Virus record (IMG/VR): IMGVR_UViG_3300007539_000006
Location: 1 to 34,525 of that record
Strand: one strand, 5' to 3'
DNA length: 34,525 bases
Origin: a virus
This document shows, in pieces, positions 1 through 34,525 of this stretch (positions within the stretch are counted from its first letter, which is position 1; each line of letters opens with the position of its first letter). The translations under genes were made by a program, and so were the position numbers. The notes beneath the pieces are model-generated. The model made no database searches, was not told where the DNA came from, and worked only from the letters and a program-made list of their open reading frames with translations.

Positions 1-123
1 CGAGCCAGTAATAAACGCAACCGTTTTAGATGGTGCCAAACAGCACCTTGATTCTTTAATTGCTGCGGCAATTAAAAACGGAGATGGCCCAACTGCGAGA
101 GCGTTTAATATGCTCAACAACGA
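1..123. repeat. Terminal direct repeat, left copy
   Basis: These 123 bases are identical to 34403-34525. A reading frame continues without a break across the join (33138 to 886 through the repeat), so the repeat is best read as the overlap left when a circular or terminally redundant genome was assembled. Whether the packaged DNA really has a 123-bp terminal repeat cannot be decided from sequence alone. Its position in the middle of a structural gene argues for an assembly overlap. Confidence 0.95.
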
Positions 124-888: not shown

Positions 889-1233
889 ATGAGCGCACAA
901 GGTTCACAGCTTGCCCAGGTGAGGCCGAGCGGCACCAGCGCGTCCGCTGTTTTTACAGCGACGATACCCACCGAGGTCACGCGGGTATTTATATCTAACA
1001 CAACCGGGTCTGCCGCAGCGTTCTCGTTGTATCACGACGATGACGGCACGACCTATGACCAAACAACCGCACTTTTCTATGGCGTGAGTGTCGCAGCAAA
1101 CACCACCACCGAATTCCAGTGCAACCCAGGCGCAGGCATCCAGATGCGCGCAGGCGGGGCGTTAGCCGTCCAAACAGACACCGGCAATGCGCTCACATTC
1201 TCAATTTATGGAATTACGGCAGAAGTAGAATAA
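889..1233 (+). CDS. Small beta-rich virion-associated protein
   Basis: This 114-residue protein is rich in Thr, Ser, Ala and Val, with no charged helices, signal peptide or membrane segment. It looks like a small beta-sandwich. Fragments such as VTRVFISNTTGSAAAFSLYH resemble the short structural proteins that sit beside tail fibre genes in marine phages. No function can be assigned. The ATG follows the previous stop by two bases with no Shine-Dalgarno motif; the context is aaccATG, also seen at 1236 and 16714. Its position between an ejection protein and the tail fibre suggests a virion or tail role. Confidence 0.7.
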   Translation: MSAQGSQLAQVRPSGTSASAVFTATIPTEVTRVFISNTTGSAAAFSLYHDDDGTTYDQTTALFYGVSVAANTTTEFQCNPGAGIQMRAGGALAVQTDTGNALTFSIYGITAEVE

Positions 1234-1235
1234 CC

Positions 1236-4200: not shown

Positions 4201-4952
4201 GATTCCAAGTTGCCTCAAATGGAAAAATAGCAGCAACAGTATCAGGCGACGAAACAGCCAGATTTAACCGCACAAGTTCTGACGGTGACATTGTTGAATT
4301 TCGCAAAGACGATTCAACCGTAGGGTCGATTGGTGCTGCTAGCGGCAGTATGTACATTGAAGGAAGTGCTGCCGCTGGCAAAGTAGGTCTAACCTTTTAT
4401 GGCTCTTCAATTGAGCCTAGAGACTCAGGCGCGGCGACTGATAACGCTGTAGATTTGGGCGCTATAGGAACCCGCTTCAAAGACCTGCACCTATCAGGCG
4501 GCATATACTTCGACGGAGGGTCGAATGAGCTAGATGACTATGAAACAGGGACATTCACTGTAGCTGTAAGTTGTGGAAGCGGTAGCATCACTCTTGAAAG
4601 CAGCACCAACCTTGCGACCTACACAAAAATAGGCAACTTGGTCGTTGTGTCGGGGAGAGTAAATGTTGATTCTGTTAGCAGCCCATCTGGAGAATTTCGT
4701 CTTACAGGAATGCCCTTTACGCTTCACGACCTTAGCGAAACTGCTGAATTAGCTCCTGCTACCGTAAATTTATATAACACAGCTAGTGACATCGTGGGGG
4801 CTATTAACGCTGAAGCCTCTATTGATGGCGGCGCGTGCACCATACTTGTCAGAGAAAATGGAGGCACAACAGCCGCTGTTGCCAACATTGCTAACAAATT
4901 CGATTCAGATTCGACAATAGGCTTCAATCTTGCCTATCGCACAGCACAATAA
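1236..4952 (+). CDS. Tail fibre / receptor-binding protein
   Basis: This 1238-residue protein is the likely host-recognition fibre. The N-terminus (MAEIKDLSTTDANNTGTA) and residues 60-150 look like the phage-attachment part seen in marine phage fibres. Three imperfect repeats of about 105-111 residues start near residues 278, 383 and 494; each carries SIKAYVD, LTGGTGID and a TGSQ.LTNKT motif. Later come the recurring marine-phage phrase DLQIYHDGNHSYIEDAGTG and chaperone-independent beta domains. The C-terminus (ELDDYETGTFT, YTKIGNLVVVSG) resembles terminal beta-sandwich domains. The frame is open from 1119, but ATG 1236 is chosen because it starts two bases after the previous stop and avoids a 39-residue Arg-rich tail overlapping that gene. 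Confidence 0.85.
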   Translation: MAEIKDLSTTDANNTGTAANAGFPENMAYSDVNNAARALEGMIARHFADSNGTLTTTGSSNAYLLTPNRTVAAYTAGDAYMIKASFTNTGAVTIDVGSLGAKSIVKPSGDALAAGEITSGGIYAIIYDGTNFQMAGADDPENLTLTSLTVTGTTALNGNTTIGDAASDTVTITADVASDLIPSADGTHDLGAVGSEWQDLFIDGTANIDSLVADTADIDAGTIDGTVIGGSTAAAVTGTTLVANTSLNIASDGATVTGIKDEDDMASDSATKLATQQSIKAYVDSQVTAQDLDFQADSGGALSVDLDSQTFTLTGGTGIDTSGSGQTVTFDIDSTVATLAGSQTLTNKTLTSPVLNTSVSGTAVLDEDNMASDSDTQLATQQSIKAYVDAQITAEDLDFQADSGGALSVDLDSQTFTLTGGTGIDTVGSGQTVTFNIDSTVATLTGSQALTNKTIDVDNNTLSNIEVDNLKSGVLDTDLTSVAATDTTLASAKAIKTYVDSQVTAQDLDVTDGSTSIDIDLDSESLGILGGTGIDSTASGTSVTLDIDSTVATLTGSQTLTNKTLTSPDINTPDIDGGTIDNTVIGGATAAAGSFTTGSFTGNVSFADNAKAIFGAGSDLQIYHDGNHSYIEDAGTGSIKIKVGDFRVENASGNNLIKGVGDVATLHHAGSEKLATTSTGIDVTGSVTADGLTSSGAVTIDPADGVADDAYALTVRNNEATDGRNYGLWVRAGSNSSDESFSVRNHDNSATYFKVRGDGAVGVGTSSPQAKLHSYTSGTGSIPTGQFNQTADDNTALTLINANNSATYSAIKLETRESQAAGWMIANEFQSAFNGDLVFRGRDGGTSSAEVLRLKSNSNATFSGSVGIGTSPSNKLHVAGSSSTRNTIVSNATLDGGTTVANPYEGFGFGIDFIGRDYGNAVRNYAGIYTLMESKSSSSGGGDAGFKTALSFYTNSGGASNTNPTEAMRIDSSGNLLVAKSAIGSNTVGFQVASNGKIAATVSGDETARFNRTSSDGDIVEFRKDDSTVGSIGAASGSMYIEGSAAAGKVGLTFYGSSIEPRDSGAATDNAVDLGAIGTRFKDLHLSGGIYFDGGSNELDDYETGTFTVAVSCGSGSITLESSTNLATYTKIGNLVVVSGRVNVDSVSSPSGEFRLTGMPFTLHDLSETAELAPATVNLYNTASDIVGAINAEASIDGGACTILVRENGGTTAAVANIANKFDSDSTIGFNLAYRTAQ
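2067..2940 (+). repeat. Three tandem coding repeats inside the tail fibre gene
   Basis: Copies begin at about 2067, 2382 and 2715 (315 and 333 bp apart). Copies 1 and 2 are close to identical in protein (QADSGGALSVDLDSQTFTLT in both). Copy 3 has diverged in its first half but keeps the IDSTVATLTGSQ.LTNKT end. The nucleotide sequences differ mostly at third positions, so selection has preserved the protein repeat while the DNA drifted. Confidence 0.85.
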
Positions 4953-8358: not shown

Positions 8359-9429
8359 TTAGCGTTTTTCTAGGCGGTCCCAGGCGTCGTGCATAATCTC
8401 AACTTCGTTGCGAATCGGCAGGTATTTGGCGTAGTAAGTAAGGATCGTGTCGACGCGATCTCCTACGTTGCTGGCTACTAGAAAAGGGTCAACCCCAATC
8501 GACAACATTGAACTAATATAGGTGTGCCGCCAAGGGTAGGGTCCACTGCGCCAGCGCACTTGCGCATCATCGTGTGCTTTTCTAAATGCAGCAACAATTG
8601 GTTTCGCGTTTGTAATCGTTTCCCCAGTAATAGACACGATGCTGCCGCCGTTAATTGGGCGAGCCATGCCTTGCAGATGTCGCGTCAAGTCACGGCTTAA
8701 AACGACGCGCCGGGGCTTACCTGTTTTTGTCCGTTGCTGCAATTTATTACGGACAACTGATTTGTTAATCCATAGACTCTCACCATTCCAATCTGCCCAG
8801 GTAAGGGCCAACAATTCTCCTGTCCGCGCCCCTGTTCCGAACGCTAATCGAAAGTAATCGGCGAACCTGCCCTGGTCGGTGACCTTTAACAATCGGCTCA
8901 CCTCATCCTGCGTATAAGGGTCTGGGTCTGTGGCTTGAACCTTGGGATTTTTTAGCGCAGTAGTCGGATCGTCTGCAATCCAGCCTCGCGACATTGCGTA
9001 TCGAAACACGCCGCGCAGTGCGGTGAGTGCATTTTTGTGAGTACGGCTGTTTGACCACTGAATCGACTCGTCTAGGTCGATCAAATCATTTCGCGTGATG
9101 TGTTGTATCAGCTTGCCGTTCAGTGGGTGCCAAAACTTGTTCAGCGTGCTTTGGTAGCCCTCAAGAGTTGAACCTTGTCGCCCCAGGGTTTTTTGTTTTT
9201 GCAGGAACTTGGCTGCTGCGTCGTAAAATAGGTTTTCGCCTGCTTCTGAGTCTTGGGGCTTAGCTCCAAATCGAACGCGCTCGTATAGCGCATCCCGTTG
9301 CTTAATTGCTGCCTCTATACCACTTTTAGTGGCTCGAAAATCGGTTGTCTGACGGTAACGCGTTTTCTTGTGGGTGATGGCGATTCTGAGCTTACCCCGG
9401 TGTAGGGTAATGTTTCTTGGCAGATCCAC
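8359..9429 (-). CDS. int: Tyrosine-recombinase integrase
   Basis: The 356-residue phage integrase is read from GTG 9429, which has AGGAG eight bases upstream; the frame stays open further up only through the xis overlap. The N-terminal part (NITLHRGKLRIAITHKKTRYR) is arm-binding-like, then comes a SAM-like core-binding domain (STLEGYQSTLNKFWHPL). The catalytic domain carries the first Arg in GTGARTGELLALTWADW, the HxxR-type motif as PWRHTYIS, and the nucleophile region ILTYYAKY. It lies next to attP and should catalyse insertion into tRNA-Arg(ACG). It overlaps xis by 115 bp. Confidence 0.93.
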   Translation of the reverse strand: MDLPRNITLHRGKLRIAITHKKTRYRQTTDFRATKSGIEAAIKQRDALYERVRFGAKPQDSEAGENLFYDAAAKFLQKQKTLGRQGSTLEGYQSTLNKFWHPLNGKLIQHITRNDLIDLDESIQWSNSRTHKNALTALRGVFRYAMSRGWIADDPTTALKNPKVQATDPDPYTQDEVSRLLKVTDQGRFADYFRLAFGTGARTGELLALTWADWNGESLWINKSVVRNKLQQRTKTGKPRRVVLSRDLTRHLQGMARPINGGSIVSITGETITNAKPIVAAFRKAHDDAQVRWRSGPYPWRHTYISSMLSIGVDPFLVASNVGDRVDTILTYYAKYLPIRNEVEIMHDAWDRLEKR

Positions 9430-9581
9430 TTTTCTATCTCCTGCACGTTCAAAAAGGTCGTTCGATCTCTCACAACGTAGTGCGTGCCCCTGATCCACAA
9501 CCCTCGCTGAATCTTGCTTCTGATTTGGTTAGGCGTCAAACCTGTTAGATCCGACGCCTTCGATTTAGTTACCCAATTCAT
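9315..9581 (-). CDS. xis: Excisionase-like DNA-binding protein
   Basis: The protein has 88 residues with a winged-helix excisionase pattern: MNWVTKSKASDLTGLTPNQI, IRSKIQRGLWIRGTHYVVRD, and a strand-helix FLNVQEIEKWI. Phage Xis proteins of this type bind attP arms and steer integrase toward excision. Its ATG overlaps the erf stop (ATGA), and its C-terminal 38 codons overlap the integrase start, so the two products are translated from one mRNA. The overlap may help set the Xis/Int ratio. Confidence 0.8.
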   Translation of the reverse strand: MNWVTKSKASDLTGLTPNQIRSKIQRGLWIRGTHYVVRDRTTFLNVQEIEKWICQETLPYTGVSSESPSPTRKRVTVRQPIFEPLKVV

Positions 9582-10219
9582 GCAGTCGCCGCCTTTTGCA
9601 TCTCATTGTGCTCAGCGAGTAAAGCGCGCATTCGCTTCCGAACGGGTGCCGCGATGAACTTCCAGAGCATCGTCGCGTAATCTGCATCGCCGTCTTTCAA
9701 TTCGATATAGGCCTCCAGCAACTCACTGTCGTCAGTTATGGCCTCAATCGCAGCAGCGTGTTGACGCATCTTTTTCTGATCCCCGGTTAGCCCTTCTTGT
9801 TCGATCACCGTGTCGACGACGCTTTGCCCGCGCTTTTTCGGTTTAGCTGACACGGCGTTGCCGTCATCGTCCTCGTCCGCAGAAATCCCGCACGCCATGG
9901 CAAGGCTATAGCGTTTTGCGTAGGTAATCGCAGCGCCAATGGAATGCGCGTCTGGCTTAGCAACGGGCACTGCGACAATGCCGGTGCCGATGGCTTCGCT
10001 GTAACCGTAAAAGACAGTCTCGATGCCCACGCCGTTATTCACTGGGCGCGAGTGCTGAATGTACGCGATGCCATGCTTCGCCAAAGGTTTAACAGCGTCA
10101 ATCACAGCCGTTAGACTGCTGTACTTCGATTTAAAATAAGGGTTTTCGCTGTCTAGTGCCGCGTGACCCATCTCTGATTGTGCTGCGGCTAAAGCCGTCG
10201 CTAAATTGTTATGTTCCAT
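9578..10219 (-). CDS. erf: ERF-family single-strand annealing recombinase
   Basis: The protein has 213 residues from ATG 10219, preceded by TGAGGGCAAAT. ERF hallmarks are visible: an N-terminal LATALAAAQSEMGHAALDSE, then NPYFKSKYSSLTAVIDAVKP, and GAAITYAKRYSLAMACGISA followed by an acidic DEDDDGN stretch. The C-terminal half is helical and variable, as in the family. It would anneal complementary single strands during recombination or genome circularisation. It sits in the minus-strand operon upstream of xis-int, while SSB is encoded in the plus-strand replication operon. Further in-frame sequence up to 10309 belongs to the overlapping upstream gene. Confidence 0.9.
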   Translation of the reverse strand: MEHNNLATALAAAQSEMGHAALDSENPYFKSKYSSLTAVIDAVKPLAKHGIAYIQHSRPVNNGVGIETVFYGYSEAIGTGIVAVPVAKPDAHSIGAAITYAKRYSLAMACGISADEDDDGNAVSAKPKKRGQSVVDTVIEQEGLTGDQKKMRQHAAAIEAITDDSELLEAYIELKDGDADYATMLWKFIAAPVRKRMRALLAEHNEMQKAATA

Positions 10220-10583
10220 ATTTGCCCTCAAAAAAACTTGGTGTGAGTTCTGGCAAGCCCGTTGGCTGTTTGCCTTTGGTTGTTTGTTCGCGTGTTCTGA
10301 AAAAACCATCGTGCTGCGGGTACTGGCGGTGAAAGCGTCTTACATAAAACGCCTTGTGGTTGTTGTTGAGCTTGAACTCTGACTGACCATCGCCCCCTGC
10401 GTCTTTCTCCCAGCGTATGCGCTCCCAAACTGCTGCCACGGAATAGTGCGTAAAGCCTCGTTCAATCATCTTGAAAGAAAACTTCACAAACAGGTCCCAC
10501 ACTTCTGGGTGCTTGGCGTGGAACTCGTTGCACTGCTTGCGCATCTCCGCGTGACGATCAGACTCCTGCACGGTCAGCCTCAT
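10209..10583 (-). CDS. Conserved phage protein upstream of erf, unknown function
   Basis: The protein has 124 residues. Recognisable blocks are EFHAKHPEVWDLFVKFSFKM, RGFTHYSVAAVWERIRWE and FKLNNNHKAFYVRRF, followed by FFRTRE. I recall the same order (HPEVW, HY..AA.WERIRWE, KLNNN..AYY.R, FFRTR) in many phage proteins near recombination genes; none has a known activity. It overlaps erf by 11 bp and the upstream zinc-binding gene by 26 bp. An accessory role in recombination is suggested only by location. Confidence 0.8.
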   Translation of the reverse strand: MRLTVQESDRHAEMRKQCNEFHAKHPEVWDLFVKFSFKMIERGFTHYSVAAVWERIRWEKDAGGDGQSEFKLNNNHKAFYVRRFHRQYPQHDGFFRTREQTTKGKQPTGLPELTPSFFEGKYGT

Positions 10584-13973: not shown

Positions 13974-14247
13974 AGACCAAAGCTGTGTGAACTGTGGTGC
14001 TGTTGGCACTGTGGTAGGCGCGCACTTGCAAGGGATGCGAGCGCACAGCTTTGGCAAAGGCCGGGGCATCAAACCGCATGATTTTTGTGTGGCTGACTTG
14101 TGCATGAAATGCCACGCCAAATTTGACTATTACGAGTCGACGGCGGGTAAAAACCTGCAGTTACGCATCGACCACTCCGAGCAGTTTCTGTATTGCGTCC
14201 TTAAAACCATTGAGCGTCGCTTTGCAGATGGAACGATAAAGGTTTGA
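13918..14247 (+). CDS. HNH/DUF1364-type nuclease-domain protein
   Basis: The protein has 109 residues from ATG 13918 (GGTGA upstream). The zinc-site pattern is CVNCGAVGTVVGAHLQGMRA, then HSFGKGRGIKPHDFCVADLC, MKCHAKFDYY. Two CxxC-type pairs plus AHL and CHAKFDY resemble the HNH-like DUF1364 proteins found with phage recombination genes (putative nuclease for branched or single-stranded DNA). Earlier in-frame starts would extend into the preceding gene without a ribosome site. Its stop overlaps the methyltransferase ATG (TGATG). Confidence 0.75.
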   Translation: MSIDKTSYVRSKKLLQASKDQSCVNCGAVGTVVGAHLQGMRAHSFGKGRGIKPHDFCVADLCMKCHAKFDYYESTAGKNLQLRIDHSEQFLYCVLKTIERRFADGTIKV

Positions 14248-14975
14248 TGCGTGTACTTGATCTATTCAGTGGCGTTGGTGGCTTCAGTCTCGGCTTGGAG
14301 GCAGCGGGCATGGAAACTGTTGCGTTTTGTGAGCGCGAGCCGTTCTGCCAAGCGGTGCTGCGCAAGCATTGGCCCGACGTCCCTATTCACGACGACATTA
14401 CACAGTTAGATGGAAAAGCGTACAGAGGAACAGTTGAGCTTGTTTGCGGAGGATTCCCCTGTCAGCCGTTCTCCGTCGCTGGGAAGCGTCGAGGCGCAGA
14501 AGATGACCGCGCACTCTGGCCAGAAATGCTCAGAGTCATACGCGAGGTACAGCCCACTTGGGTCATTGGCGAAAATGTTACTGGGATCATCGCAATGGAA
14601 CTCGACACGGTGCTTTCTGACTTGGAAGGCGAAGGCTACGCCTGCCAAGCGTTTGTACTTCCAGCTTGTGCCGTTGATGCCCCACACCGCAGAGACAGAG
14701 TTTGGGTTGTGGCCGACGCCCAGAGCAAGCGAATGGAAAGGAACGGGGCCTTTAGGGTCAAAGAGCCACAACCATCGACTAGAAAGGGGTTATTTGGATG
14801 CGACAGTCCAAGAGGCAAGCCAAGAATCTGGGAGTCTGAACCCAGCGTGGGTCGAGTGGCTAATGGGGTTCCCAATAGGTCACACCGACTTAAATCCCTC
14901 GGAAACGCAGTCGTTCCGCAAGTCGTTGAGCAAATCGGCAAAGCCGTGATGGAAATACACGATGTCGCAGGCTGA
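14247..14975 (+). CDS. dcm: DNA cytosine-5 methyltransferase, short form
   Basis: The protein has 242 residues. The C5-MTase motifs are all present in order: DLFSGVGGFSLGLE (I, residues 5-18), GGFPCQPFSVAG (IV, catalytic Cys72), GENV (VI), HRRDRVW (VIII) and LKSLGNAVVPQVVEQI (X). The target-recognition part between VIII and X is only about 50 residues, much shorter than in free-standing enzymes. It would methylate phage DNA against host restriction or for regulation. ATG 14247 (TGATG coupling) is chosen over TTG 14244. A second open frame of 179 codons lies entirely inside this gene. Confidence 0.9.
   Translation: MRVLDLFSGVGGFSLGLEAAGMETVAFCEREPFCQAVLRKHWPDVPIHDDITQLDGKAYRGTVELVCGGFPCQPFSVAGKRRGAEDDRALWPEMLRVIREVQPTWVIGENVTGIIAMELDTVLSDLEGEGYACQAFVLPACAVDAPHRRDRVWVVADAQSKRMERNGAFRVKEPQPSTRKGLFGCDSPRGKPRIWESEPSVGRVANGVPNRSHRLKSLGNAVVPQVVEQIGKAVMEIHDVAG
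14410..14949 (+). CDS. Overprinted protein-like frame inside dcm (WPTP...WVEWLMGFP family)
   Basis: The 179-codon frame lies +1 to dcm and fully nested in it. The product has MTAHSGQKCSESYARYSPLG, WNSTRCFLTWKAKATPAKRL, FGLWPTPRASEWKGTGPLG, SKSHNHRLERGYLDATVQE and LNPAWVEWLMGFPIGHTDL. I recall the same series of motifs in numerous phage-encoded proteins of unknown or methyltransferase-related annotation, so this is unlikely to be a chance frame. Part of the pattern follows from dcm codons (GRVANGVP gives WLMGF). The GSKSH...YLDATVQE block lies over the variable dcm target domain and is not explained that way. No clear ribosome site precedes ATG 14410. Confidence 0.5.
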   Translation: MEKRTEEQLSLFAEDSPVSRSPSLGSVEAQKMTAHSGQKCSESYARYSPLGSLAKMLLGSSQWNSTRCFLTWKAKATPAKRLYFQLVPLMPHTAETEFGLWPTPRASEWKGTGPLGSKSHNHRLERGYLDATVQEASQESGSLNPAWVEWLMGFPIGHTDLNPSETQSFRKSLSKSAKP

Positions 14976-17121: not shown

Positions 17122-18244
17122 CATCCGCGAGTCGGTGCATAAGTTATTGGCTGACCAGATAGACCGCCTTGGCTTACAAGATCATTACGAGATCGTTGAG
17201 CATACGATTAGAGGCCGTAACGGGTCTGAGTTTATCTTTGAAGGCTTGCGGCACAACGTCACAAAGATCAAGTCCATGGAAGCCGTGGACATTGCGTGGA
17301 TTGAGGAAGCGGACCGGGTATCGGACGAGTCCTGGCAGGTATTGATCCCAACCATTCGTAAACCCGGCTCTGAAATATGGGTCACGTTTAACCCACAGAT
17401 GCGCGCAGACGCCACTTACCAACGTTTTGTAGAGCACCCGCCAGAGAATGCGCTGGTTCAGAAGGTGAGTTGGCGCGACAACCCATGGTTTCCAGACGAG
17501 CTAACGTCGGAACTAGAGCATTTGAAGCAGGTCGATTACGACGAATACCTGCATGTGTGGGAAGGCGAGTTTAAGTCGTTCGCAACGTCAGCGATTTACG
17601 GCAACCAGTTAAAACAAGCGCGAGAGGAAGGGCGCATAACTACGGTCCCAATCGAACCGGCATGCGAAGTACATACGGCGTGGGACTTGGGCAAGAACGA
17701 CACCACAGCAATTTGGTTTTTCCAAAAGGTGGGTGTTGAGTATCGGTTTATTGATTACGAAGAAAACCGCCTGGTTGACTTGGACTTTTACGCCAAAGCG
17801 ATCAAGAACAGAGACTATATATACGGCGTGCATTACTTACCGCACGACGTTGACTTTGAGTTGCTGGGGATGGTGAACAACCGCCGCCAACAGCTAGAGG
17901 ATTCTGGGGTTAAGCCTATTGAGGTGGTGCCTCGGATCAGACACATCAATGAAGGCATAGAGATGACTCGGCGCATGTTCGCAAGTTGCTGGTTTGACAA
18001 AGACCGCTGCGAGCGCGGCATCGAGGCTCTGGCCAATTACGAATACAGCTTTGATGCGAAGAACAACACGCACCGCAGCACGCCGCTACACAACTGGGCG
18101 AGTAATGGTGCTGACGCATTTAGGCAGGTTGCGCAGGGATTCAAGCAAACGTCCTGGGCACGCATGAACGACAACACAATGAGTGAACGCCGACGCCGCA
18201 TCGTCGGTACGCAGTGGAACAGCGACACTGCTTGGAGAATTTAA
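16946..18244 (+). CDS. terL: Terminase large subunit (Terminase_3 / PBSX type)
   Basis: The protein has 432 residues. The ATPase domain has Walker A GGRGAAKS (residues 25-32) and Walker B DIAWIEEAD (115-123). The C-terminal RNase H-like nuclease begins TAWDLGKNDTTAIWFF (Asp247), followed by HYLPHDVDFELLG and a final Asp-containing ASNGADAFR. It translocates and cuts phage DNA at the portal. TTG 16946 directly follows an in-frame stop (16943-16945), so an upstream start is impossible. The start lies within terS, 176 bp before that gene ends. Confidence 0.93.
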   Translation: MEKVLEIPSVYQNLYQPNRYKVFWGGRGAAKSWNCAIALLIQATQRPLRVLCTREVQGSIRESVHKLLADQIDRLGLQDHYEIVEHTIRGRNGSEFIFEGLRHNVTKIKSMEAVDIAWIEEADRVSDESWQVLIPTIRKPGSEIWVTFNPQMRADATYQRFVEHPPENALVQKVSWRDNPWFPDELTSELEHLKQVDYDEYLHVWEGEFKSFATSAIYGNQLKQAREEGRITTVPIEPACEVHTAWDLGKNDTTAIWFFQKVGVEYRFIDYEENRLVDLDFYAKAIKNRDYIYGVHYLPHDVDFELLGMVNNRRQQLEDSGVKPIEVVPRIRHINEGIEMTRRMFASCWFDKDRCERGIEALANYEYSFDAKNNTHRSTPLHNWASNGADAFRQVAQGFKQTSWARMNDNTMSERRRRIVGTQWNSDTAWRI

Positions 18245-20361
18245 TGGAATACGAAAACGAGCCGATGGACGAAAGCCAAGTCGTCTCGATTGTGCGTGGA
18301 AAGATTAATGATTGCTTGAACGAGTCCGGTGGTGAAATCTCCGAGACACGCATGGAAAACTATGATTTCTATGTGGGTAAAGAGTACGGCAACGAGCGCG
18401 ATGGCTTTAGTAGCGTTGTTACACGTGAATCAATGGAAGCGGTTGAGTGGGCGTTGCCCTCAATCATGCGCGTGTTTACATCGAGCAATCAGGTGGTGTC
18501 TTACGACCCGGTAGGGCCAGAGGACGAAGAAGAAGCGCGGCAGCAGACTCAGATTGCAAATCACTATCTGACCCGCGAAAACAACGCATTCCTATCGCTG
18601 TACAACTGGTTTAAAGACACCCTTATGTATCCAAACGGGTACATAAAGCTGTACATGGACGAGCGTATCGTGACTCGTTTAGAAGAATTTGAAGGCCTAG
18701 ACATGATGCAGCTACAGGCTGCCATGGTAAATCTTGCCCAGGAAGGCGAGGTCGAGGTCGTCGCGCAGGAAAGCAGCTATGAGGAAGTCATGGCCGACAA
18801 CGGGTTTGTCAGTCAGTCTGAAACGTTCTCGGTAAAACTGCGCGTCACTAAGCGCATCATGGAGCCAAAGCTCGTTAACGTGCCGCCCGATGAGATGTTG
18901 GTGGCTGAGAACTGTTACAGCATTGACCTAGATGAAGCCGATTTCCTATGCCACCGGGTACGTAAGACGTACAGCGAACTGTTAGAGATGGGCTATGACC
19001 GCGACCTGTTGGATGGCGTTGGTGCTAGTTACAGCGGACAGTTTGATGAGGAAGACGAGAACCGGCTGTTTTCTGAGGAAGAAGACGAGGTAAACGAGAG
19101 TGACCCGTCGATGCGCGTGTATATCGTCAACGAGTGCTATCTAAAGATAGACGAGGACGGTGATGGCATAGCCGAGCACCGCAAAATCTGCATGATCGGC
19201 AGCACCATATTTGCTGACGAGGAGATCAATTATCAGCCATTCGTCGCGCTGACGACTGTTCCGCTGCCGCACCAGCATCCCGGCCTGAGCATGGTCGACC
19301 TGGTAAAAGACATCCAGAAGATCAAGTCGACGCTTATGCGCAACATGCTCGACAACATCTACAAAGCCAACGTGCGCAGAAAGTACGTGGGCGATGCCTT
19401 TATCTCTGATGAGGCAGGCACGCTTGATGTGCTGCTGGATACGGCGAGCGAGTTTATACCGGCGAGAGATCCCGGCGCATTACGCGAAGAACAGGTCCAG
19501 CCGATTGTCTCTGAGATATTGCCGGTGATGAAAACCATGGACGAGGTGCAAGGCATCCGTACTGGCATCACGCCGCAGCTAAGCCTAGACCCAAACATTT
19601 TGCGCGAAACCACAATGGGCGCGTATCAGTCTGCAATCAGCCAAGCCAGCCAGAGGGTCGAAATGATCGTCCGCATCTTTGGCGAAACCGGCATGAAACA
19701 GTTGTTTATCAAGATGCACCAGTTATTACGTACCAGTGTCGATAAGGACCGCACAATTCGCATCCGAGGCAAGTGGGTGCCGTTCAACCCTGCAGGGTGG
19801 CGTGAGCGTAACAACGTCGCTGTCGAGGTAGGGCTGGGCTACAACAGCAAGGCCGAAGAACTGCAGATGCTAAACAGCTTGCTGACCATTCAGAAAGAGG
19901 CTGTGCAGTTCGGGTTGGCGTCCCCAGGCAACGTGTACAACACGCTGGATCGCATGGTCGAGTTAGGCAACGTAGGCGACACGCAGACGTTCTTTACAGA
20001 CCCGGCGACATTGCCGCCGAAAGGACCGCCGCAGCCAAGCATTGCAGAGCAGCTTGCAATGACAGACCTACAGATGCGCCAAGCAGAAAGCCAAGCGAAC
20101 CTGCAGATGAAGTCCAACGAGATGCAGATAAAGCAGCAGTCGGCTGCTGTTGAGGCTCAGGCAAAGATGTCTACGGATCAGCAGAAGATGCAGATGCAAA
20201 TTGCTGAGTTGCAGGCGAAGTTGGCCGAGATGGACGCCGACAAGAAACTCAAAGAGGCACAAACGTATAAGACGCTGGAAGAAGCGCGTGGGTTGGATCT
20301 GGAGAACGACGGCACTGAGACAGGTGTAGTGGATTTGCTAACGGAGCAACTGCGTGGGTAG
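18244..20361 (+). CDS. Portal protein, P22-like
   Basis: The protein has 705 residues from ATG 18244, overlapping the terL stop (TAATG). Typical blocks of P22-type portals of short-tailed phages: YDFYVGKEYGNERDGFSSVV, VEWALPSIMRVFTSSNQVVS, YNWFKDTLMYPNGYIKLYMD near the N-terminus, and a core RNMLDNIYKANVRRKYVGDA, GIRTGITPQLSLDPNILRET. The C-terminal 130 residues form a Gln/Met/Lys-rich coiled coil like the P22 portal barrel. It forms the dodecameric ring through which TerL packages DNA and tail proteins attach. Confidence 0.9.
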   Translation: MEYENEPMDESQVVSIVRGKINDCLNESGGEISETRMENYDFYVGKEYGNERDGFSSVVTRESMEAVEWALPSIMRVFTSSNQVVSYDPVGPEDEEEARQQTQIANHYLTRENNAFLSLYNWFKDTLMYPNGYIKLYMDERIVTRLEEFEGLDMMQLQAAMVNLAQEGEVEVVAQESSYEEVMADNGFVSQSETFSVKLRVTKRIMEPKLVNVPPDEMLVAENCYSIDLDEADFLCHRVRKTYSELLEMGYDRDLLDGVGASYSGQFDEEDENRLFSEEEDEVNESDPSMRVYIVNECYLKIDEDGDGIAEHRKICMIGSTIFADEEINYQPFVALTTVPLPHQHPGLSMVDLVKDIQKIKSTLMRNMLDNIYKANVRRKYVGDAFISDEAGTLDVLLDTASEFIPARDPGALREEQVQPIVSEILPVMKTMDEVQGIRTGITPQLSLDPNILRETTMGAYQSAISQASQRVEMIVRIFGETGMKQLFIKMHQLLRTSVDKDRTIRIRGKWVPFNPAGWRERNNVAVEVGLGYNSKAEELQMLNSLLTIQKEAVQFGLASPGNVYNTLDRMVELGNVGDTQTFFTDPATLPPKGPPQPSIAEQLAMTDLQMRQAESQANLQMKSNEMQIKQQSAAVEAQAKMSTDQQKMQMQIAELQAKLAEMDADKKLKEAQTYKTLEEARGLDLENDGTETGVVDLLTEQLRG

Positions 20362-22717
20362 AAAGCCAAGCCTTGCAAGCCTTGTTGTAGATTATCAGCG
20401 CAAGAAGCTGGACGCGGTTCACGGCACCAAGTATGAGTTTGACGACTTTGAGCTAGGTGTGAACAAAGGCACTCACGGTCAGATGTACGGTGAGGGCATT
20501 TATGCGTCCAACGCCGATGAGGTAGCCGGTAGCTACGCGCCTCGTGACCCAGATCATGAAGATTGGATGATGTCGCAATACTATGCGGCAGATGGCGACG
20601 TATTTTTAATGGATGCCTGGGAGCGTGCATTAATGCACGAAACGCCGTGGTCGATGCGTGAACTAGCAAAGGACCCTGACATCGACGAGCGTACTCGCGA
20701 GGCGTACCTAAAGGTCGCACAGGCGCTCTCTGATAACCCTCCGAGAAGTGGCCACATGCTGCGTCTGCAGATTGATGCCGACGTCGGCGAGTTATTAAAC
20801 TGGGATGCGCCGTTAAGCGAGCAGCCAGAATTCGTGCAGAAGGCGGCAGTAGGTATGGGCCTGCCAAGCAACGCGAAGGGTAAAGACATCTACTACGGTA
20901 TGGTCGATGCAAGTACATCGGCGCAAGAAGCGCCGACCAAAATACGGCAGGCGTTACAAAAGATTGGCGCGAAGGGTATTACCTACAAAGAGCGCAACTC
21001 GGCAGACGCACAGAATTATGTGATCTTTGACCCGAAGATTATCGAAATAGCAGAGCGTTATGCGATGCCGGTTACCTACGTTGGGGCTGGTGGCGTAGCG
21101 GCTGCGTCGGCTCAAGATGCAGAGGCAGGCGTCAAGTTTCCGAGTGGGCCAAGAACAATCGGTTCAGAGTTCGACCCGCGTTTCGATCCGCGCAAAAAAG
21201 AACAAGAGCGTTTGGCGAACACTACTGTAGAAACGCTACAGCGGTCTGATGTAGACAACGTGCCGCAACTGTCTCTATCTGATCTTGAGGGGCAGTCGTT
21301 TGTGACTTCGATGTCGGATCGTACTGGGGCCGGTGACTTTATAACCGGCATTGACGGCGTAACGCTAGACAGGCCTGTCAGCAGGCGTGGCGGGCAGGAT
21401 TTCATGTTTGAAAATCCTTCAGTGTGGGCGTCGGCGCAAGCGCCTGCTGCGGACATACAGCGGAAAGCGGCTGAGATAAGACAAAAAACAAAGCAAGACC
21501 CGGCATACATCCCATGGCGTATGGCACCAACGGGTGGCGACTTTGCGGTAGAGACGGGCGAGGCAATGCTTGCGTATGCGTCTGCGAACATGAGTAAGGC
21601 TCAGAAGCGCGAGCTAGATCGCGCAGTGCGAAAGTTTGCGACTGTCGGATCGATGGTGAAAGGCAAGCGTGTAAACGCAGGCAAAAAGATCAAGGGCTGG
21701 AAGGGTGTAGACGACCCTGCATCGGTTGATGCGTGGCGTAACGCGCCTGATGTCGTTCGCAAAGAACTTATGAACATGATGGACGTACAGTTCCGCAACA
21801 AGGGCGGGCTAAGCAGAGGTCAGGCGCGCTTGGTATTGGCCGACACGAGACAGTTGAACGCGAGGGACGCGGGGATACAAAACGTCGGCGTTATTCGGGA
21901 AGGTGAATTAAAGCAGTCGACTCACCCGTCCTATCCATTTGCAGTGCCCGGTGAGGGGGTTGGTCGTCTAAAAAATGCGGACGACGTTACGATATTCGAC
22001 CTGCTGCCAGACGCCAGATTTGGTGACGCGCAAAAGCTAGTGAAGGACCCAGCAAATCCAACGCAGCAAGAGATACGTGCGTTGCAGATGAAAGCCTACG
22101 CTGGGCAGATAACAGAGCAAACGTTGCGTCGTTTAGAGGCGCGTGGCGTAGATGTCAAAGCGATACCTGGCCTGATACCAGCGGTGTTGGGCACAGGCGC
22201 GGTGATGTCCGGCGAGAGGGCCTATGCAGAAGAAATACCAAACATGCAGGCTGTTGAGCAGCGAGCACAAGCCTTTGCCAATCAGCGGGATACTAAAAAC
22301 AAAGCCTGGTCGAACCTAAAAGATGCCGTGGGCAAGATGACGCAACCATTCCAGCCCTTAGCTGAGTTTGTGGCGCACAGTGCTGCAGGCATGGGGTCAG
22401 GGTTGGTCGGAGCCGTCGGGTACAGCGAAACCGACATGCCAGCGCAGTCGATAGAGCAAAGCCGAGATATGGTGCGCGGCATACCAGAACAAATGGGCTT
22501 CGGTCCTATGGATGAAAACGCCTACCAGATCGCGCTCAACCAAGCCATTGATGGCATCTCTGACACGATTATGAGCGACAACGCGATGCGCGCATTTGTC
22601 GACCCGGTAATGCAGGACGTTGCGCCGCAGTTAATGAACCAATACCAGCAACTTGACCCAAGAACGCAGGGAATGCTCAGCGGACTTGGTGAGTACATAG
22701 GAAACGCAATTAGATGA
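20354..22717 (+). CDS. Large virion protein with N-terminal ADP-ribosyltransferase-like domain
   Basis: The protein has 787 residues, with a GTG start and GGAG seven bases upstream. Residues 20-230 resemble the ART-PolyVal domain: VHGTKYEFDDFELGVNKG (His23), MYGEGIYASNADEVAGSYA, LLNWDAPLSEQPEFVQKA, and KIGAKGITYKERN with NYVIFDPKIIEI near 221. The middle has SLSDLEGQSFVTSMSDRTGA, PWRMAPTGGDFAVETGEAML and KGGLSRGQARLVLADTRQLN, a block I recall from marine phage structural proteins. The C-terminal part is helical with a hydrophobic patch. Its place right after the portal suggests it is packaged and may enter the host with the DNA; catalytic activity is inferred. Confidence 0.75.
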   Translation: MGRKPSLASLVVDYQRKKLDAVHGTKYEFDDFELGVNKGTHGQMYGEGIYASNADEVAGSYAPRDPDHEDWMMSQYYAADGDVFLMDAWERALMHETPWSMRELAKDPDIDERTREAYLKVAQALSDNPPRSGHMLRLQIDADVGELLNWDAPLSEQPEFVQKAAVGMGLPSNAKGKDIYYGMVDASTSAQEAPTKIRQALQKIGAKGITYKERNSADAQNYVIFDPKIIEIAERYAMPVTYVGAGGVAAASAQDAEAGVKFPSGPRTIGSEFDPRFDPRKKEQERLANTTVETLQRSDVDNVPQLSLSDLEGQSFVTSMSDRTGAGDFITGIDGVTLDRPVSRRGGQDFMFENPSVWASAQAPAADIQRKAAEIRQKTKQDPAYIPWRMAPTGGDFAVETGEAMLAYASANMSKAQKRELDRAVRKFATVGSMVKGKRVNAGKKIKGWKGVDDPASVDAWRNAPDVVRKELMNMMDVQFRNKGGLSRGQARLVLADTRQLNARDAGIQNVGVIREGELKQSTHPSYPFAVPGEGVGRLKNADDVTIFDLLPDARFGDAQKLVKDPANPTQQEIRALQMKAYAGQITEQTLRRLEARGVDVKAIPGLIPAVLGTGAVMSGERAYAEEIPNMQAVEQRAQAFANQRDTKNKAWSNLKDAVGKMTQPFQPLAEFVAHSAAGMGSGLVGAVGYSETDMPAQSIEQSRDMVRGIPEQMGFGPMDENAYQIALNQAIDGISDTIMSDNAMRAFVDPVMQDVAPQLMNQYQQLDPRTQGMLSGLGEYIGNAIR

Positions 22718-22980
22718 AACGACGCGATCCTGTCGTTGTAGGCAAAGATGCAGAGCATTTGCTAGAGCACCCTTTGCTGCAAGAAAGTTTTGACGCAATC
22801 GAGCGAGATGTGGTCAACGCCTTAGCTTCTACCCAGTTAGTAACGGGCGAGCATGAGCAGGCTGTTGAACTGGTGCGCACGCTCCAGGCAAATCGCCGAT
22901 TGAAGAAAAAGCTGTGGGAGTTTGTCTCTCACGGAAAAATCGAGGCCAAAGCAAAAGAGCGGAGGACCCTCAAAAAGTAA
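22714..22980 (+). CDS. Small helical protein between virion protein and scaffold
   Basis: The protein has 88 residues, coupled by ATGA overlap. Sequence features are HPLLQESFDAIERDVVNALA, EHEQAVELVRTLQANRRLKK and a basic end. Small proteins of this pattern lie between portal and scaffold genes in podovirus-like genomes; an assembly role is plausible. A perfect palindrome starts immediately after its stop. Confidence 0.7.
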   Translation: MKRRDPVVVGKDAEHLLEHPLLQESFDAIERDVVNALASTQLVTGEHEQAVELVRTLQANRRLKKKLWEFVSHGKIEAKAKERRTLKK

Positions 22981-23014: not shown

Positions 23015-24100
23015 GTGGATACCCCAACATCGGATTCTACTAATTCACTGGACATCGCCACGCAACGCTTAATGGATAGCGCAGTGCTTGGGGATGATGG
23101 AACACTCAACACATCGGATGAAGCTGATCCGGTGCTCGATGACGCCGACGTTCAAGAGATTGAGCAGGACATTGAGGCAGAACTGGTCGATGAACAGACT
23201 GCAGAGGTTGAGGTTGATGACACCGAGGAAGTCGAAGAAACGGCATCCGAAGACGACGAACAACAGGCATCTTATGAGTCGCTCCAAGACTTTGCCGAGG
23301 CGTTAGACGTTCCTATGGAGGAGCTTTTAGCTACCGTAAAGGCGAAAATAAAAGTCGACGGAGTGGAGGACGAGATTACCCTCGACAGTCTGATTCGCGA
23401 TCACCAGAAGAGTAGACATTTTCTCACGAAGGCAAATCAGCTTGCCGAAGAACGCCGACAGTTTGATGCGGAAGTGCAAGAGCGGTTGCAGCAGTTTGAA
23501 ACCTCAAACGCTGAATCGGCCTACATCTTGAACACTTTGACCGCAAACGTTCACAAGAAGATGCGAAGCCCCCAGATGCAAAAGTTGCGTAAAAGCAACG
23601 TTGCGGAATGGAACGCGCAGCGCATTCAGCTTGAGGACAATCTGCAAGGCATTGAAAAGCTGAGAAAGAACGCTGCAACCAAGTATGAAGCCACCAAAGC
23701 AAAGATCGCCCAGGACAAGCAAACCCGGCTTGCTGAGCGGTTAGTGGAGGAAGCTGAACGGTTAGAGCAAACGATACCGAATTGGTCCGAGGCGACTCGG
23801 TCTGAGATCACCAACTTTTTGATGCAGGAGCCTGATTACGGTTTCCAGCCAGAAGTCGTGAACGCCATCAATGACCATCGCTATGTGCGAATGGCATGGG
23901 AGGCGATGCAGTATCGTAAACAGCTAAAGGACGCGGACCAGACAGTGAAAGCTGTTAAGAAAGCACCCAAGGCACTCAAGCCGGGCAAGCGACCCTCTGC
24001 TAATTCCAACCAGCAAAAGCAGGTTCAGCAGTTACGTGGACGACTTCGCAAGTCAGGCAGCATCAAGGACGCAGCAGCACTATTCGAGAAAATACTATGA
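23015..24100 (+). CDS. Capsid scaffolding protein
   Basis: The protein has 361 residues, with a GTG start preceded by GGAGG. The first 90 residues are extremely acidic (EAELVDEQTAEVEVDDTEEV). A short beta-like segment (KIKVDGVEDEITLDSLIRDH) is followed by a long coiled coil (LAEERRQFDAEVQERLQQFE) and a basic C-terminus (KKAPKALKPGKRPSANSN) ending in a short helix. An acidic, coiled-coil, basic-tailed protein immediately before the capsid gene is the usual layout of phage scaffolds, whose C-terminus binds the coat protein. Confidence 0.85.
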   Translation: MDTPTSDSTNSLDIATQRLMDSAVLGDDGTLNTSDEADPVLDDADVQEIEQDIEAELVDEQTAEVEVDDTEEVEETASEDDEQQASYESLQDFAEALDVPMEELLATVKAKIKVDGVEDEITLDSLIRDHQKSRHFLTKANQLAEERRQFDAEVQERLQQFETSNAESAYILNTLTANVHKKMRSPQMQKLRKSNVAEWNAQRIQLEDNLQGIEKLRKNAATKYEATKAKIAQDKQTRLAERLVEEAERLEQTIPNWSEATRSEITNFLMQEPDYGFQPEVVNAINDHRYVRMAWEAMQYRKQLKDADQTVKAVKKAPKALKPGKRPSANSNQQKQVQQLRGRLRKSGSIKDAAALFEKIL

Positions 24101-24112
24101 GGAAATCGAATC

Positions 24113-25177
24113 ATGGCTCAGTCCACCAATACATTAGATCGGTATGATCTAGCAACCAACGGTGACAACGCTCGCGAAGATTTAGCAAATATCATTAGCG
24201 ACATTTCACCAACAGAAACTCCCTTCCAATCTTCTATCGGTAAGGGAACAGCAGAAAACACGTTCACCGAATGGCTCATGGACTCTCTCGCCACAGCGAG
24301 CAGCAGTAATGCGCATATCGACGGTGACGAGTTCTCAGGCGACGCTTTAAGCACGCCTGCCCGACTTGGCAACTACTGCCAGATCAGCCGCAAAGACCTA
24401 GTGGTATCTCGCCGAGCTAACATCGTTAACAAGGCAGGACGTCGCCAAGAGATGGCCTACCAGCTAGCCAAGGCCGGTAAGGAGATCAAGCGGGATGTCG
24501 AGTCGGTGCTTCTGGCAAACCAAGTTGGCGCGTCAGGCTCAAACAGCGCGGCTGGTACCACTGCAGGCTTGCCTGCTTGGATCGGTTTGGCGGTATCTTC
24601 TGAAGTTGATACTGGCAATACCAATCGTGGTTCTGGCGGTGCCGATCCAGCACTGTCGAGCACAAACGACGGCTATCCGAACACAGCAGCAACCGACGGC
24701 ACAGTGCGCGCACTGACCGAAGATGGTTTGTTGAGTGTTATCAAAGCCTGCTACGTAAATGGCTCTAACCCGAACGTCATTATGATGGGACCGACTGTTA
24801 AACAGCAGTTCTCAAAGTATATGTTCAGCAGCAACAGCCGTATCGCGACCCCTTACCAAGACTATGGTAAGAACCAGCGTGACGGTGTTGGTGTGGTAGG
24901 AGCGGTTGACGTATACGTCAGCGACTTCGGTGTACTCGACGTTGTACCTAACAGGCTGCAACGACAGGTATCCAGCGACTACGTAGACGTATTCGTACTC
25001 GATACAGAGTATGCGCAGGTCAAGTATCTGGACGACTACCGTACAGACGTTATCTCAACTGTTGGCGACGCAGAGCGCCGTATGCTCTTGGTTGACTATG
25101 CCCTATGCATAGATAACCCAGGTGCTCACGGCATCTACGCTGACGTTGACGACGACGCAGCAATGACAGCCAGCTAA
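24113..25177 (+). CDS. Major capsid protein, SU10-like (DUF5309)
   Basis: The protein has 354 residues. The opening, STNTLDRYDLATNGDNARED, then LANIISDISPTETPFQSSIG and NTFTEWLMDSLA, is characteristic of SU10-type HK97-fold major capsid proteins. Later blocks include GNYCQISRKDLVVSRRANIV, GPTVKQQFSKYM, VVGAVDVYVSDFGVLDVVPN and LLVDYALCIDNPGAHGIYAD. It forms the icosahedral shell. It sits between the scaffold and a strong terminator. The coding sequence uses frequent C-ending codons (gac, aac, acc), as expected for a highly expressed gene. Confidence 0.92.
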   Translation: MAQSTNTLDRYDLATNGDNAREDLANIISDISPTETPFQSSIGKGTAENTFTEWLMDSLATASSSNAHIDGDEFSGDALSTPARLGNYCQISRKDLVVSRRANIVNKAGRRQEMAYQLAKAGKEIKRDVESVLLANQVGASGSNSAAGTTAGLPAWIGLAVSSEVDTGNTNRGSGGADPALSSTNDGYPNTAATDGTVRALTEDGLLSVIKACYVNGSNPNVIMMGPTVKQQFSKYMFSSNSRIATPYQDYGKNQRDGVGVVGAVDVYVSDFGVLDVVPNRLQRQVSSDYVDVFVLDTEYAQVKYLDDYRTDVISTVGDAERRMLLVDYALCIDNPGAHGIYADVDDDAAMTAS

Positions 25178-33154: not shown

Positions 33155-34525
33155 TGATTTAGACAAGCTGCGAGGCGCAACCGATGCGCAACTGCGAAGA
33201 GTTGCAGCTAAGCGTGCTCCTAGCGGCCCAGATCCAGACCCAGAGCGGTATGCGGCAATTCTTGCCGAAATGGAAAGGCGTTCTGATTCGCAAAAAACAA
33301 CGCAGTCACAAAGTCGTCCCTCTGGCTTATTGCAGCGTGCTGGCGATATTGCTACGGCTATAAACCAAGGCATTACGTTTGGATTTGGTGATGAAATCAC
33401 CGGATTGTTAGGCGCTCTTGGATCAATGGGTTCTAATGAATCTTTTGGCGACAGGTATACAAGCTATCGCGATGCGAGTCGGCAAAGCCTTCGCGACTTA
33501 AACCCGGTGGCAAGGGCGGGATTGGAAATAGGGGGCGGGCTGTTGTCAGGCAGTGCTGCGCTTGGCGCAGGACGTCAATTAATGGGGCAAGCCAATCGTA
33601 TGCTGCCGCAACAGGTGCAGCAATTTGCGCCAAAAGTAGCGCCTCGGTTGGTTGAGCCAATGACGCGCACACAAGCGGCTACGACGGGTGCAGGGGCAGG
33701 CGGCATCGCTGGGGTTGGTGCGTCAGAAAGACCTTTAAGCGACCCAGAGATCGGCACAGACGCCGTATTTGGGGCCGCTTTCGGTGGCGGGTTGAATGCA
33801 GCGACGTTTTTAACGCCGACACAACGGCAGCAGTTGGCAACGCAAGCTAGATCGCTACTTGGTCAGGCTCCTACGGCTGAATATGGACGGCAGGCTAGAC
33901 GCGCCGTGACGCGAGCAATGGACGACGAAGAATTGACGCCTGCGATGGCGTCAGAACGATTGTCAACGATGCCACCGGGGGCAAGTTTGCTAGATGTCGG
34001 GGCGCCCGGCGGTACGATCAAAGAATTGGGCGAGGGCATTGTTGTAGGTGGTGGCCCTGCTGCAACAAAAGTAAACCGAGTGATTCGGGGTAGAAAAGAT
34101 GAAGCCCCTGCGCGGGTCGACGAGATGTTGTCTGACTTAATGGGCAATCCAAGCGCGTTTTATAAGACAAAAGACGAGCTAGAACAGAAAATGAAGGCTG
34201 ATTCTGCGCCGTTATACGAACAATTTAGGCGTATTGAGTTGGAGATGACGCCTGCGCTTGAAGACGTCATTGACCGATTGGACGCGGCAAAAGCTGGGAA
34301 CGCAAACATATTAGATCGTGGGCGCAGGCTGATGTATGCGTCTGGAGAACTCAAAGTACCTGGAAAAGGCGACAAGCCAGAATTGGTAGCAGGAAAGGGC
34401 GACGAGCCAGTAATAAACGCAACCGTTTTAGATGGTGCCAAACAGCACCTTGATTCTTTAATTGCTGCGGCAATTAAAAACGGAGATGGCCCAACTGCGA
34501 GAGCGTTTAATATGCTCAACAACGA
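33138..34525 (+). CDS. Large ejection/internal virion protein, N-terminal part (continues at 1)
   Basis: The frame opens at ATG 33138 (GGAGGGCGACG upstream) and has no stop before the window end; through the 123-bp repeat it continues to 886, giving 716 residues. Features are DKLRGATDAQLRRVAAKRAP at the start, the recurring phage motif GITFGFGDEITGLLGALGS near residue 80, a Gly/Ala-rich hydrophobic stretch (AGLEIGGGLLSGSAALGAG) and long charged helices. The length and last place in the late operon resemble P22 gp16. A short local duplication (GKGDKPELVAGKGDEPV) lies near residue 420. Confidence 0.82.
   Translation, partial: MALTSSDLDKLRGATDAQLRRVAAKRAPSGPDPDPERYAAILAEMERRSDSQKTTQSQSRPSGLLQRAGDIATAINQGITFGFGDEITGLLGALGSMGSNESFGDRYTSYRDASRQSLRDLNPVARAGLEIGGGLLSGSAALGAGRQLMGQANRMLPQQVQQFAPKVAPRLVEPMTRTQAATTGAGAGGIAGVGASERPLSDPEIGTDAVFGAAFGGGLNAATFLTPTQRQQLATQARSLLGQAPTAEYGRQARRAVTRAMDDEELTPAMASERLSTMPPGASLLDVGAPGGTIKELGEGIVVGGGPAATKVNRVIRGRKDEAPARVDEMLSDLMGNPSAFYKTKDELEQKMKADSAPLYEQFRRIELEMTPALEDVIDRLDAAKAGNANILDRGRRLMYASGELKVPGKGDKPELVAGKGDEPVINATVLDGAKQHLDSLIAAAIKNGDGPTARAFNMLNN
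34403..34525. repeat. Terminal direct repeat, right copy
   Basis: This is identical to bases 1-123 over all 123 positions and lies in frame within the junction-spanning ejection gene. When one copy is removed the genome closes as a circle of about 34,402 bp. Confidence 0.95.

What the first reader, a model, noticed from the sequence alone, without database searches (positions are those of the whole stretch)
20354..22717. ADP-ribosyltransferase-like domain fused to a large virion protein behind the portal
Residues 20-230 match the ART-PolyVal pattern (HGT..EF..F, YGEGIYAS..EVA..YA, LLNWD.PL.EQP, GIKGI-like TYKERN, NYVIFDP). The rest of the protein looks structural. An enzyme carried in the virion could modify host proteins at injection, as T4 Alt does, before any phage gene is expressed.
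Basis: partly seen in the sequence, partly recalled or inferred. Interest (0 to 1): 0.7.

Follow-up and report, generated by a model that had tools for sequence, protein, structure and literature searches.

The report
Phage-carried enzyme with swappable cargo modules
A marine short-tailed phage encodes, right behind its DNA-portal gene, a 787-residue multi-part protein that begins with an ADP-ribosyltransferase-fold enzyme domain and is probably packed in the particle and injected; close relatives keep its tail end but swap the enzymes it carries, which points to an interchangeable delivery vehicle for host-modifying cargo.

Summary
The 787-aa ORF at 20354-22717 is real and translationally coupled to the SU10/LUZ24-type portal gene. 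Its first ~240 residues are an ADP-ribosyltransferase (ART) domain of the ART-PolyVal kind. The predicted fold matches AcrIF11, diphtheria toxin, RES and PARP ARTs. H23, Y50 and Y61 are conserved, but an invariant Asn (N221) sits where canonical enzymes have Glu. dN/dS is ~0.07, like the portal.

The rest is not a recognisable virion protein. Residues 271-607 (MID) are an undescribed phage-only domain; residues ~623-787 (CT) are a separate module.

Close relatives (portals 84-94% identical), plus two others, keep CT and a short N-terminus in the same slot but carry different cargo: this ART+MID, this ART with another middle module, other ARTs with or without MID, LPD23 with a metallopeptidase-like motif, or an unidentified module. 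Module junctions carry signal-peptide-like linkers, and both breakpoints of one swap fall in them.

Best reading: a polyvalent effector packaged in the head and injected, with interchangeable cargo. ART fold is well supported, packaging is inferred from gene context, activity is untested. Virion-packaged polyvalent ARTs are already known as a class; the swappable carrier, MID and linkers make this a new variant.

The parts
20354..22717 (+). ART-MID-CT polyvalent protein gene, 787 aa, GTG start overlapping the portal stop, stop overlapping the next ATG
20354..21076 (+). ART domain (residues 1-241)
   Evidence: AlphaFold model pLDDT 86; Foldseek to AcrIF11, diphtheria toxin catalytic domain, RES toxin, tankyrase; homologues hit PF18760
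20420..20422 (+). H23 (first ART motif), 93% conserved
20501..20503 (+). Y50 (second ART motif), 97% conserved in the HMM alignment, invariant in A3
20534..20536 (+). Y61, 11 residues after Y50, 99% conserved
20804..20824 (+). D151...Q157, subfamily motif DWDxPLSEQ, both residues 100% conserved
21014..21016 (+). N221 at the position of the catalytic Glu; 100% Asn in this subfamily, Glu in the other slot ART (L174) and in an ART of L012
21071..21130 (+). Junction linker 1, residues 240-259: VTYVGAGGVAAASA-QDAEA|G, signal-peptide-like; swap breakpoint at 21103
21164..22174 (+). MID domain (residues 271-607), undescribed phage-only domain
22166..22231 (+). Junction linker 2, residues 605-626: PGLIPAVLGTGAVMSG-ERAYA|E; swap breakpoint at 22223
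22220..22714 (+). CT domain (residues ~623-787), constant carrier end shared by cargo variants
18214..20361 (+). Portal protein (SU10 type, PF23899), directly upstream
22714..22980 (+). 88-aa gene of phrog_12935, same family as phiGT1 gp6 in the same relative position
23015..24100 (+). Head scaffolding protein
   Evidence: phrog_3927
24113..25177 (+). Major capsid protein (SU10_MCP)

Best explanation
The gene encodes a polyvalent effector: a multi-module protein made with the head proteins, packaged in the head and ejected with the DNA. Its N-terminal ART domain binds NAD+ through an H-Y-Y pocket and most likely mono-ADP-ribosylates host macromolecules at the start of infection (substrate unknown; Asn in the Glu position argues against poly-ADP-ribosylation). 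MID is a second cargo module of unknown activity. CT, with a short N-terminal tag, is the constant carrier part, probably for packaging or ejection. Cargo is exchanged as cassettes whose junctions are hydrophobic AxA-ending linkers. Shown by sequence or model: the gene, operon context, ART fold, H/Y/Y/N conservation, purifying selection, MID as a phage domain, constant CT with variable cargo, linker enrichment, breakpoints at the linkers. Inferred: packaging, injection, catalysis, target, and the role of CT and linkers.
For: Fold: model pLDDT 86, pTM 0.74; top Foldseek hits AcrIF11 (prob 0.99, E 0.014), diphtheria toxin catalytic domain (0.80), RES toxin, tankyrases. Family: 51/57 homologues hit ART-PolyVal. 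Active site: H23 93%, Y50 97%, Y61 99%, D151, Q157 and N221 100% of 74-77 unique sequences. dN/dS: ART 0.07-0.08, MID 0.04, portal 0.07. Context: TerL-portal-this gene-phrog_12935-scaffold-MCP, overlapping starts and stops; phiGT1 has portal-gp4-ART-phrog_12935-scaffold-MCP. Carrier: CT shared by L001, L075, L174, L177, L182, L185 and L020 with different cargo. Swap: window and L075 are ~81% identical in DNA upstream of 21103, share the CT again from 22223, and show no similarity between. Literature: polyvalent ARTs predicted packaged and injected (PMC5512222); about 44% of phage ARTs lie in a context suggesting head packaging (PMC9503650).
Against: No virion proteomics for this phage, and the phiGT1 mass-spectrometry table is in a supplement I could not open. 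The catalytic Glu is replaced by Asn. The ART-PolyVal hit of this protein itself is below Pfam's cut-off, and no Foldseek match to the PDB reached E<=0.001. MID and CT have no characterised relative, so their role is open.
Confidence: 0.66

Rival explanations
1. The ART domain acts as an NAD+ glycohydrolase (or NAD-binding anti-defence factor) rather than a transferase: it changes NAD+ or ADP-ribose signals used by bacterial immunity instead of modifying a host macromolecule.
For: Asn replaces the usual Glu in every member; RES toxins, NAD-degrading by established knowledge, share the fold and are among the top structural matches; phage NAD-directed systems often counter immunity (PMC9503650).
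Against: Best match is AcrIF11, a true transferase with variant residues (H-F-H-D; PMC12421852). PARP-family enzymes lacking the Glu are mono-ARTs by substrate-assisted catalysis (PMC4695847). Strong conservation of additional motifs suggests a specific active site rather than a relaxed one.
Confidence: 0.2
2. The protein is not packaged: it is a late intracellular protein translated with the head genes, modifying the host or capsid components during assembly.
For: No direct evidence of presence in virions here; many near-lineage phages (LUZ24, HTVC106P, Mvi-Yong1342-1) have nothing in the slot, so it is dispensable for assembly.
Against: Translational coupling to the portal, the constant CT with variable cargo, and the known packaging of other polyvalent and head-operon ARTs favour a virion protein.
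Confidence: 0.2
3. The ART fold is a catalytically dead remnant used as a structural or binding domain of a virion protein.
For: Loss of the catalytic Glu; some PARP relatives with further substitutions do not bind NAD+ (PMC4695847).
Against: H, Y, Y, D151, Q157 and N221 are near-invariant across very divergent sequences (~25-35% identity), and dN/dS is ~0.07.
Confidence: 0.13

Closest known systems
ART-PolyVal domains of polyvalent proteins (PF18760; Tox-ART-HYD2 clade, Iyer et al. 2017, PMC5512222)
   Same: ART fold, HG[ST] and GxGxYFA motifs, one module of a multidomain protein in the late/head gene block, several ART copies in some relatives
   Different: Asn instead of the family's acidic residue in the last motif; extra DWDxPLSEQ motif; own hit below the Pfam cut-off; joined to an undescribed MID domain
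Phage T4 Alt
   Same: Proposed logic: packaged ART injected with DNA, acting before phage gene expression
   Different: Alt is R-S-E type with shown activity and virion location; different architecture; neither activity nor location is shown here
AcrIF11 (anti-CRISPR ADP-ribosyltransferase, PDB 6KYF)
   Same: Best structural match of the ART domain; also a phage ART with non-canonical catalytic residues (H-F-H-D)
   Different: Small stand-alone protein of 137 residues that modifies Csy1; not part of a head-operon polyprotein
Sulfitobacter phage phiGT1 gp5 (QLB38217.1)
   Same: ART of the same subfamily between portal and the phrog_12935/scaffold/MCP genes
   Different: 387 aa, no MID and no CT; an extra gene (gp4) lies between portal and ART
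Polymorphic toxin / MuF-type effector proteins
   Same: Constant trafficking part with exchangeable effector modules
   Different: The constant part is CT plus a short N-terminal tag, unrelated to MuF or secretion domains by the searches made

Membership tests
ADP-ribosyltransferase superfamily | ART fold | tested here: met
   Best PDB matches of the model are ART folds, though none at E<=0.001 (AcrIF11 prob 0.99, diphtheria toxin catalytic domain 0.80)
ADP-ribosyltransferase superfamily | NAD+-dependent transferase activity | not testable with these tools
   Needs a biochemical assay
H-Y-[EDQ] clade (PARP/diphtheria type) | His in strand 1 and Tyr in strand 2 | tested here: met
   H23 in strand 19-25 and Y50 in strand 49-52, 93% and 97% conserved
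H-Y-[EDQ] clade (PARP/diphtheria type) | E, D or Q as third catalytic residue | tested here: not met
   N221, 100% Asn in the subfamily, aligned by motif with Glu of L174 and L012 ARTs. Nearby D226 (91%) could not be excluded as the functional residue without coordinates
ART-PolyVal (PF18760) | Match above the curated cut-off | tested here: not met
   This protein 16-18 bits against 31.2; 51/57 homologues match at E<=0.01, and the ART in the same slot of L174 passes with 41 bits
Polyvalent proteins | Several unrelated effector-type domains in one protein of a phage or conjugative element | tested here: inconclusive
   ART, MID and CT are distinct modules, and relatives carry several ARTs, LPD23 or an HExxH motif; that MID is an effector is not shown
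Polyvalent proteins | Transfer into the host with the DNA | not testable with these tools
   Virion proteomics or translocation assay needed
T4 Alt family | R-S-E active site | tested here: not met
   Motifs are H-Y-Y-N
MuF-fused ARTs | MuF domain | tested here: not met
   No MuF match in Pfam or PHROGs

The most novel reading that the evidence does not exclude
The slot behind the portal houses a polymorphic injected-effector system: a constant carrier (short N-terminal tag plus CT) into which effector cassettes are swapped between otherwise similar phages, with internal signal-peptide-like linkers (hydrophobic stretch, helix breaker, AxA|G/A) at which a host peptidase cuts the ejected polyprotein into separate effectors as it crosses the inner membrane.
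Probability: 0.2. Interest if true: 0.78.

Novelty: new variant of a known kind. Interest (0 to 1): 0.52.

Why it matters
Virion-carried effectors act before any phage gene is expressed and can disarm or reprogramme a host at once, but few have been characterised outside phages such as T4, N4 and P1. A carrier that keeps its ends while swapping enzymes gives a handle for finding new injected effectors (whatever lies between portal and scaffold next to CT) and for asking how phages load and release them. MID is a conserved phage-only domain with no credible sequence relative in 50,697 phage records, and the ART subfamily tests whether an Asn-containing active site works.

Tried and rejected
Sequence search of PDB with P0001, the MID alignment and two ART alignments: nothing significant. 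MID against PDB folds: only weak YTH-domain hits (E 0.1, prob 0.2, TM about 0.1), kept as a lead, not used. MID and CT against Pfam and PHROGs: no credible hit. CT by tblastn in the phage records: none below E 0.1. phiGT1 gp4 as a MID homologue: rejected, it belongs to other structural PHROGs (phrog_1645). Prophage hosts for MID: one small contig binned in a Flavobacteriaceae MAG, probably viral and uninformative. The elemoC 'structural protein' label as proteomic proof of MID in virions: dropped, the paper found does not mention elemo phages or mass spectrometry. The phiGT1 paper was read for gp5 in virions; the data are in a supplement not available here. ART or MID in slots of more distant portal relatives (about 34% identity): none by HMM in 80 loci, although L222 has an ART-like slot gene by motif (HGT...IYTT) and a sub-threshold Pfam hit.

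Full report
Observation. The ORF 20354-22717 (+) encodes 787 aa from a GTG preceded by GGAG; the start overlaps the portal stop and its TGA overlaps the ATG of the next gene. Neighbours are a Terminase_3 large subunit, an SU10-type portal (E 8e-166), an 88-aa phrog_12935 protein, a scaffold and an SU10 capsid protein. The window carries a 123-bp exact repeat at its two ends, consistent with a complete genome.

The ART domain. The Pfam ART-PolyVal hit of this protein alone is sub-threshold (E 0.005-0.018). Related sequences settle it: phiGT1 gp5 and vir555 match by tblastn (E 4e-8, 2e-7), and IMG/VR holds hundreds of relatives (466 in one scan), of which 51 of 57 aligned ones hit ART-PolyVal (best 2e-8). 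The AlphaFold model of residues 1-262 from that alignment is good for most of residues 20-235 (mean pLDDT 86, pTM 0.74). Its best structural matches are AcrIF11 (prob 0.99), the diphtheria toxin catalytic domain (0.80), the RES toxin and tankyrases; E-values are modest (0.014 upward), but the top of the list is dominated by ART folds. Strand positions put H23 in the first strand, Y50 in the second and N221 in the strand 220-224.

Active site. Over the unique homologues H23 is 93%, Y50 97%, Y61 99%, and D151, Q157, G208, Y211, N221 are 100%. The Y50-Y61 spacing of 11 equals that of the two pocket tyrosines of PARP1 and diphtheria toxin (own knowledge). The residue aligned with the catalytic Glu is Asn throughout; in the different ART found in the same slot of L174 and in an ART of L012 that position is Glu (DETVVFDP, DELVIFDP). 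The literature describes polyvalent ARTs as H-Y-D (PMC5512222) and the wider clade as H-Y-[EDQ] (PMC9503650). AcrIF11 works with H-F-H-D (PMC12421852), and PARPs without the Glu act as mono-ARTs by substrate-assisted catalysis (PMC4695847). So an Asn variant is compatible with activity but not proof of it; D226 (91%) remains an alternative. dN/dS between this phage and two relatives is 0.07-0.08 for the ART, the same as the portal, and 0.04 for MID against L001.

MID. Residues 271-607 align over 38 sequences with about 60 invariant positions. No Pfam, PHROG or PDB sequence match is credible, and no credible relative is found by tblastn in 50,697 phage records (best E 0.3). The model is confident (pLDDT 85, pTM 0.84), has no PDB match, but matches 17 predicted viral proteins at E 8e-7 or better; those with a name are phage proteins, and lengths run from about 420 to 1,490 residues. 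In freshwater phages MID is the C-terminal part of a ~400-450-aa protein; in several it lies directly upstream of the small gene-scaffold-capsid block, in others upstream of TerL. It is therefore an undescribed phage module that, where neighbours could be named, lies in the head or packaging region.

A constant carrier with changing cargo. Close relatives (portals 84-94% identical), and also L185 and L020, have a gene in this slot that shares the C-terminal ~165 residues and a short V[AG]-type N-terminus, but not the cargo: window, L001 and L002 have this ART plus MID; L075, L006 and L008 the same ART (88%) plus a different middle module; L185 another ART plus MID; L174 another ART (41 bits to ART-PolyVal) with no MID; L173, apparently continued by the overlapping contig L182, LPD23 with an HExxH motif; L177 an unidentified module; L020 MID then ART. 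L177 and L185 share 79% of CT yet no cargo. CT was found only in this small lineage, not in the phage records or PHROGs. Against L075 the DNA is ~81% identical up to window 21103 and similarity resumes at 22223. In more distant LUZ24-like phages the slot is often empty: portal is followed directly by the ~76-97-aa gene and the scaffold. phiGT1 carries a stand-alone ART there, followed by the same phrog_12935 gene.

Linkers. Module junctions carry an uncharged Ala/Gly/Leu-rich stretch followed by a helix breaker and [A/V]xA|[G/A], such as ILGGAATAAVGAGLLAT-PEEAEAG, and twice in this protein (linker 1 ends QDAEA|G, linker 2 AYA|E). Sites of this form occur at 1.03 per 1000 residues in ART/MID proteins against 0.20 in other long ORFs of the same loci; 93 were observed against a mean of about 21 in shuffled proteins. 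After removing near-duplicates, 30% of hydrophobic stretches in these proteins are followed by such a motif against 9% elsewhere. The -3/-1 Ala pattern and Pro at -6 resemble signal peptidase I sites. The set is still phylogenetically related and the pattern was defined after looking, so this is a lead. Both breakpoints of the L075 swap fall in these linkers.

Mechanism. The best-supported account is a polyvalent effector co-produced with the head, packaged and ejected, whose ART domain modifies a host macromolecule at entry. Packaging and injection rest on context and on precedent for this class; activity and target are untested. The role of CT as a packaging or ejection domain is inferred from its constancy. 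The linkers may be cleavage sites, membrane-inserting helices or plain linkers.

Verdict. The ART call is right, the description of the remainder is not. As a virion-context ART this is a member of a class described in 2017; the exchange of cargo on a constant carrier, the MID domain and the junction linkers go beyond what I found described.

Noticed in passing
window 1-123 and 34403-34525: Exact 123-bp direct repeat at the two ends, consistent with a complete (circularly closed or terminally repeated) genome of about 34.4 kb
   Followed up: no
window 8359-9498 (-) and 9578-10309 (-): Tyrosine integrase and ERF recombinase genes, so this SU10/LUZ24-type podovirus may be temperate
   Followed up: partly
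window 14244-14975 (+): C-5 cytosine DNA methylase (PF00145, E 7e-50) upstream of the packaging genes, matching only the first ~180 of 324 profile positions
   Followed up: no
window 2016-2950: Three roughly 315-330-bp repeated units inside a 1277-aa ORF (1119-4952), possibly a repetitive fibre or adhesin-like protein
   Followed up: no
L075 8763-10235: Alternative middle module (about 490 aa) replacing MID; relatives at 58-66% identity in L168 and L170, no Pfam match, one in an 1884-aa polyvalent-type protein
   Followed up: partly
L012, L009: Proteins of 1500-1600 aa with two or three ART-type domains around MID
   Followed up: partly
L222 7103-7837: A 245-aa gene directly behind a distant portal relative with an ART-like HGT...IYTT motif and a sub-threshold ART-PolyVal hit, suggesting ARTs occupy this slot more widely
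   Followed up: partly
L038, L026, L112: In other lineages the MID or ART+MID gene sits directly after TerL rather than after the portal
   Followed up: partly
L173 4140-5264: LPD23 with an HExxH (LHEQQH) metallopeptidase-like motif as cargo, another candidate injected module
   Followed up: partly
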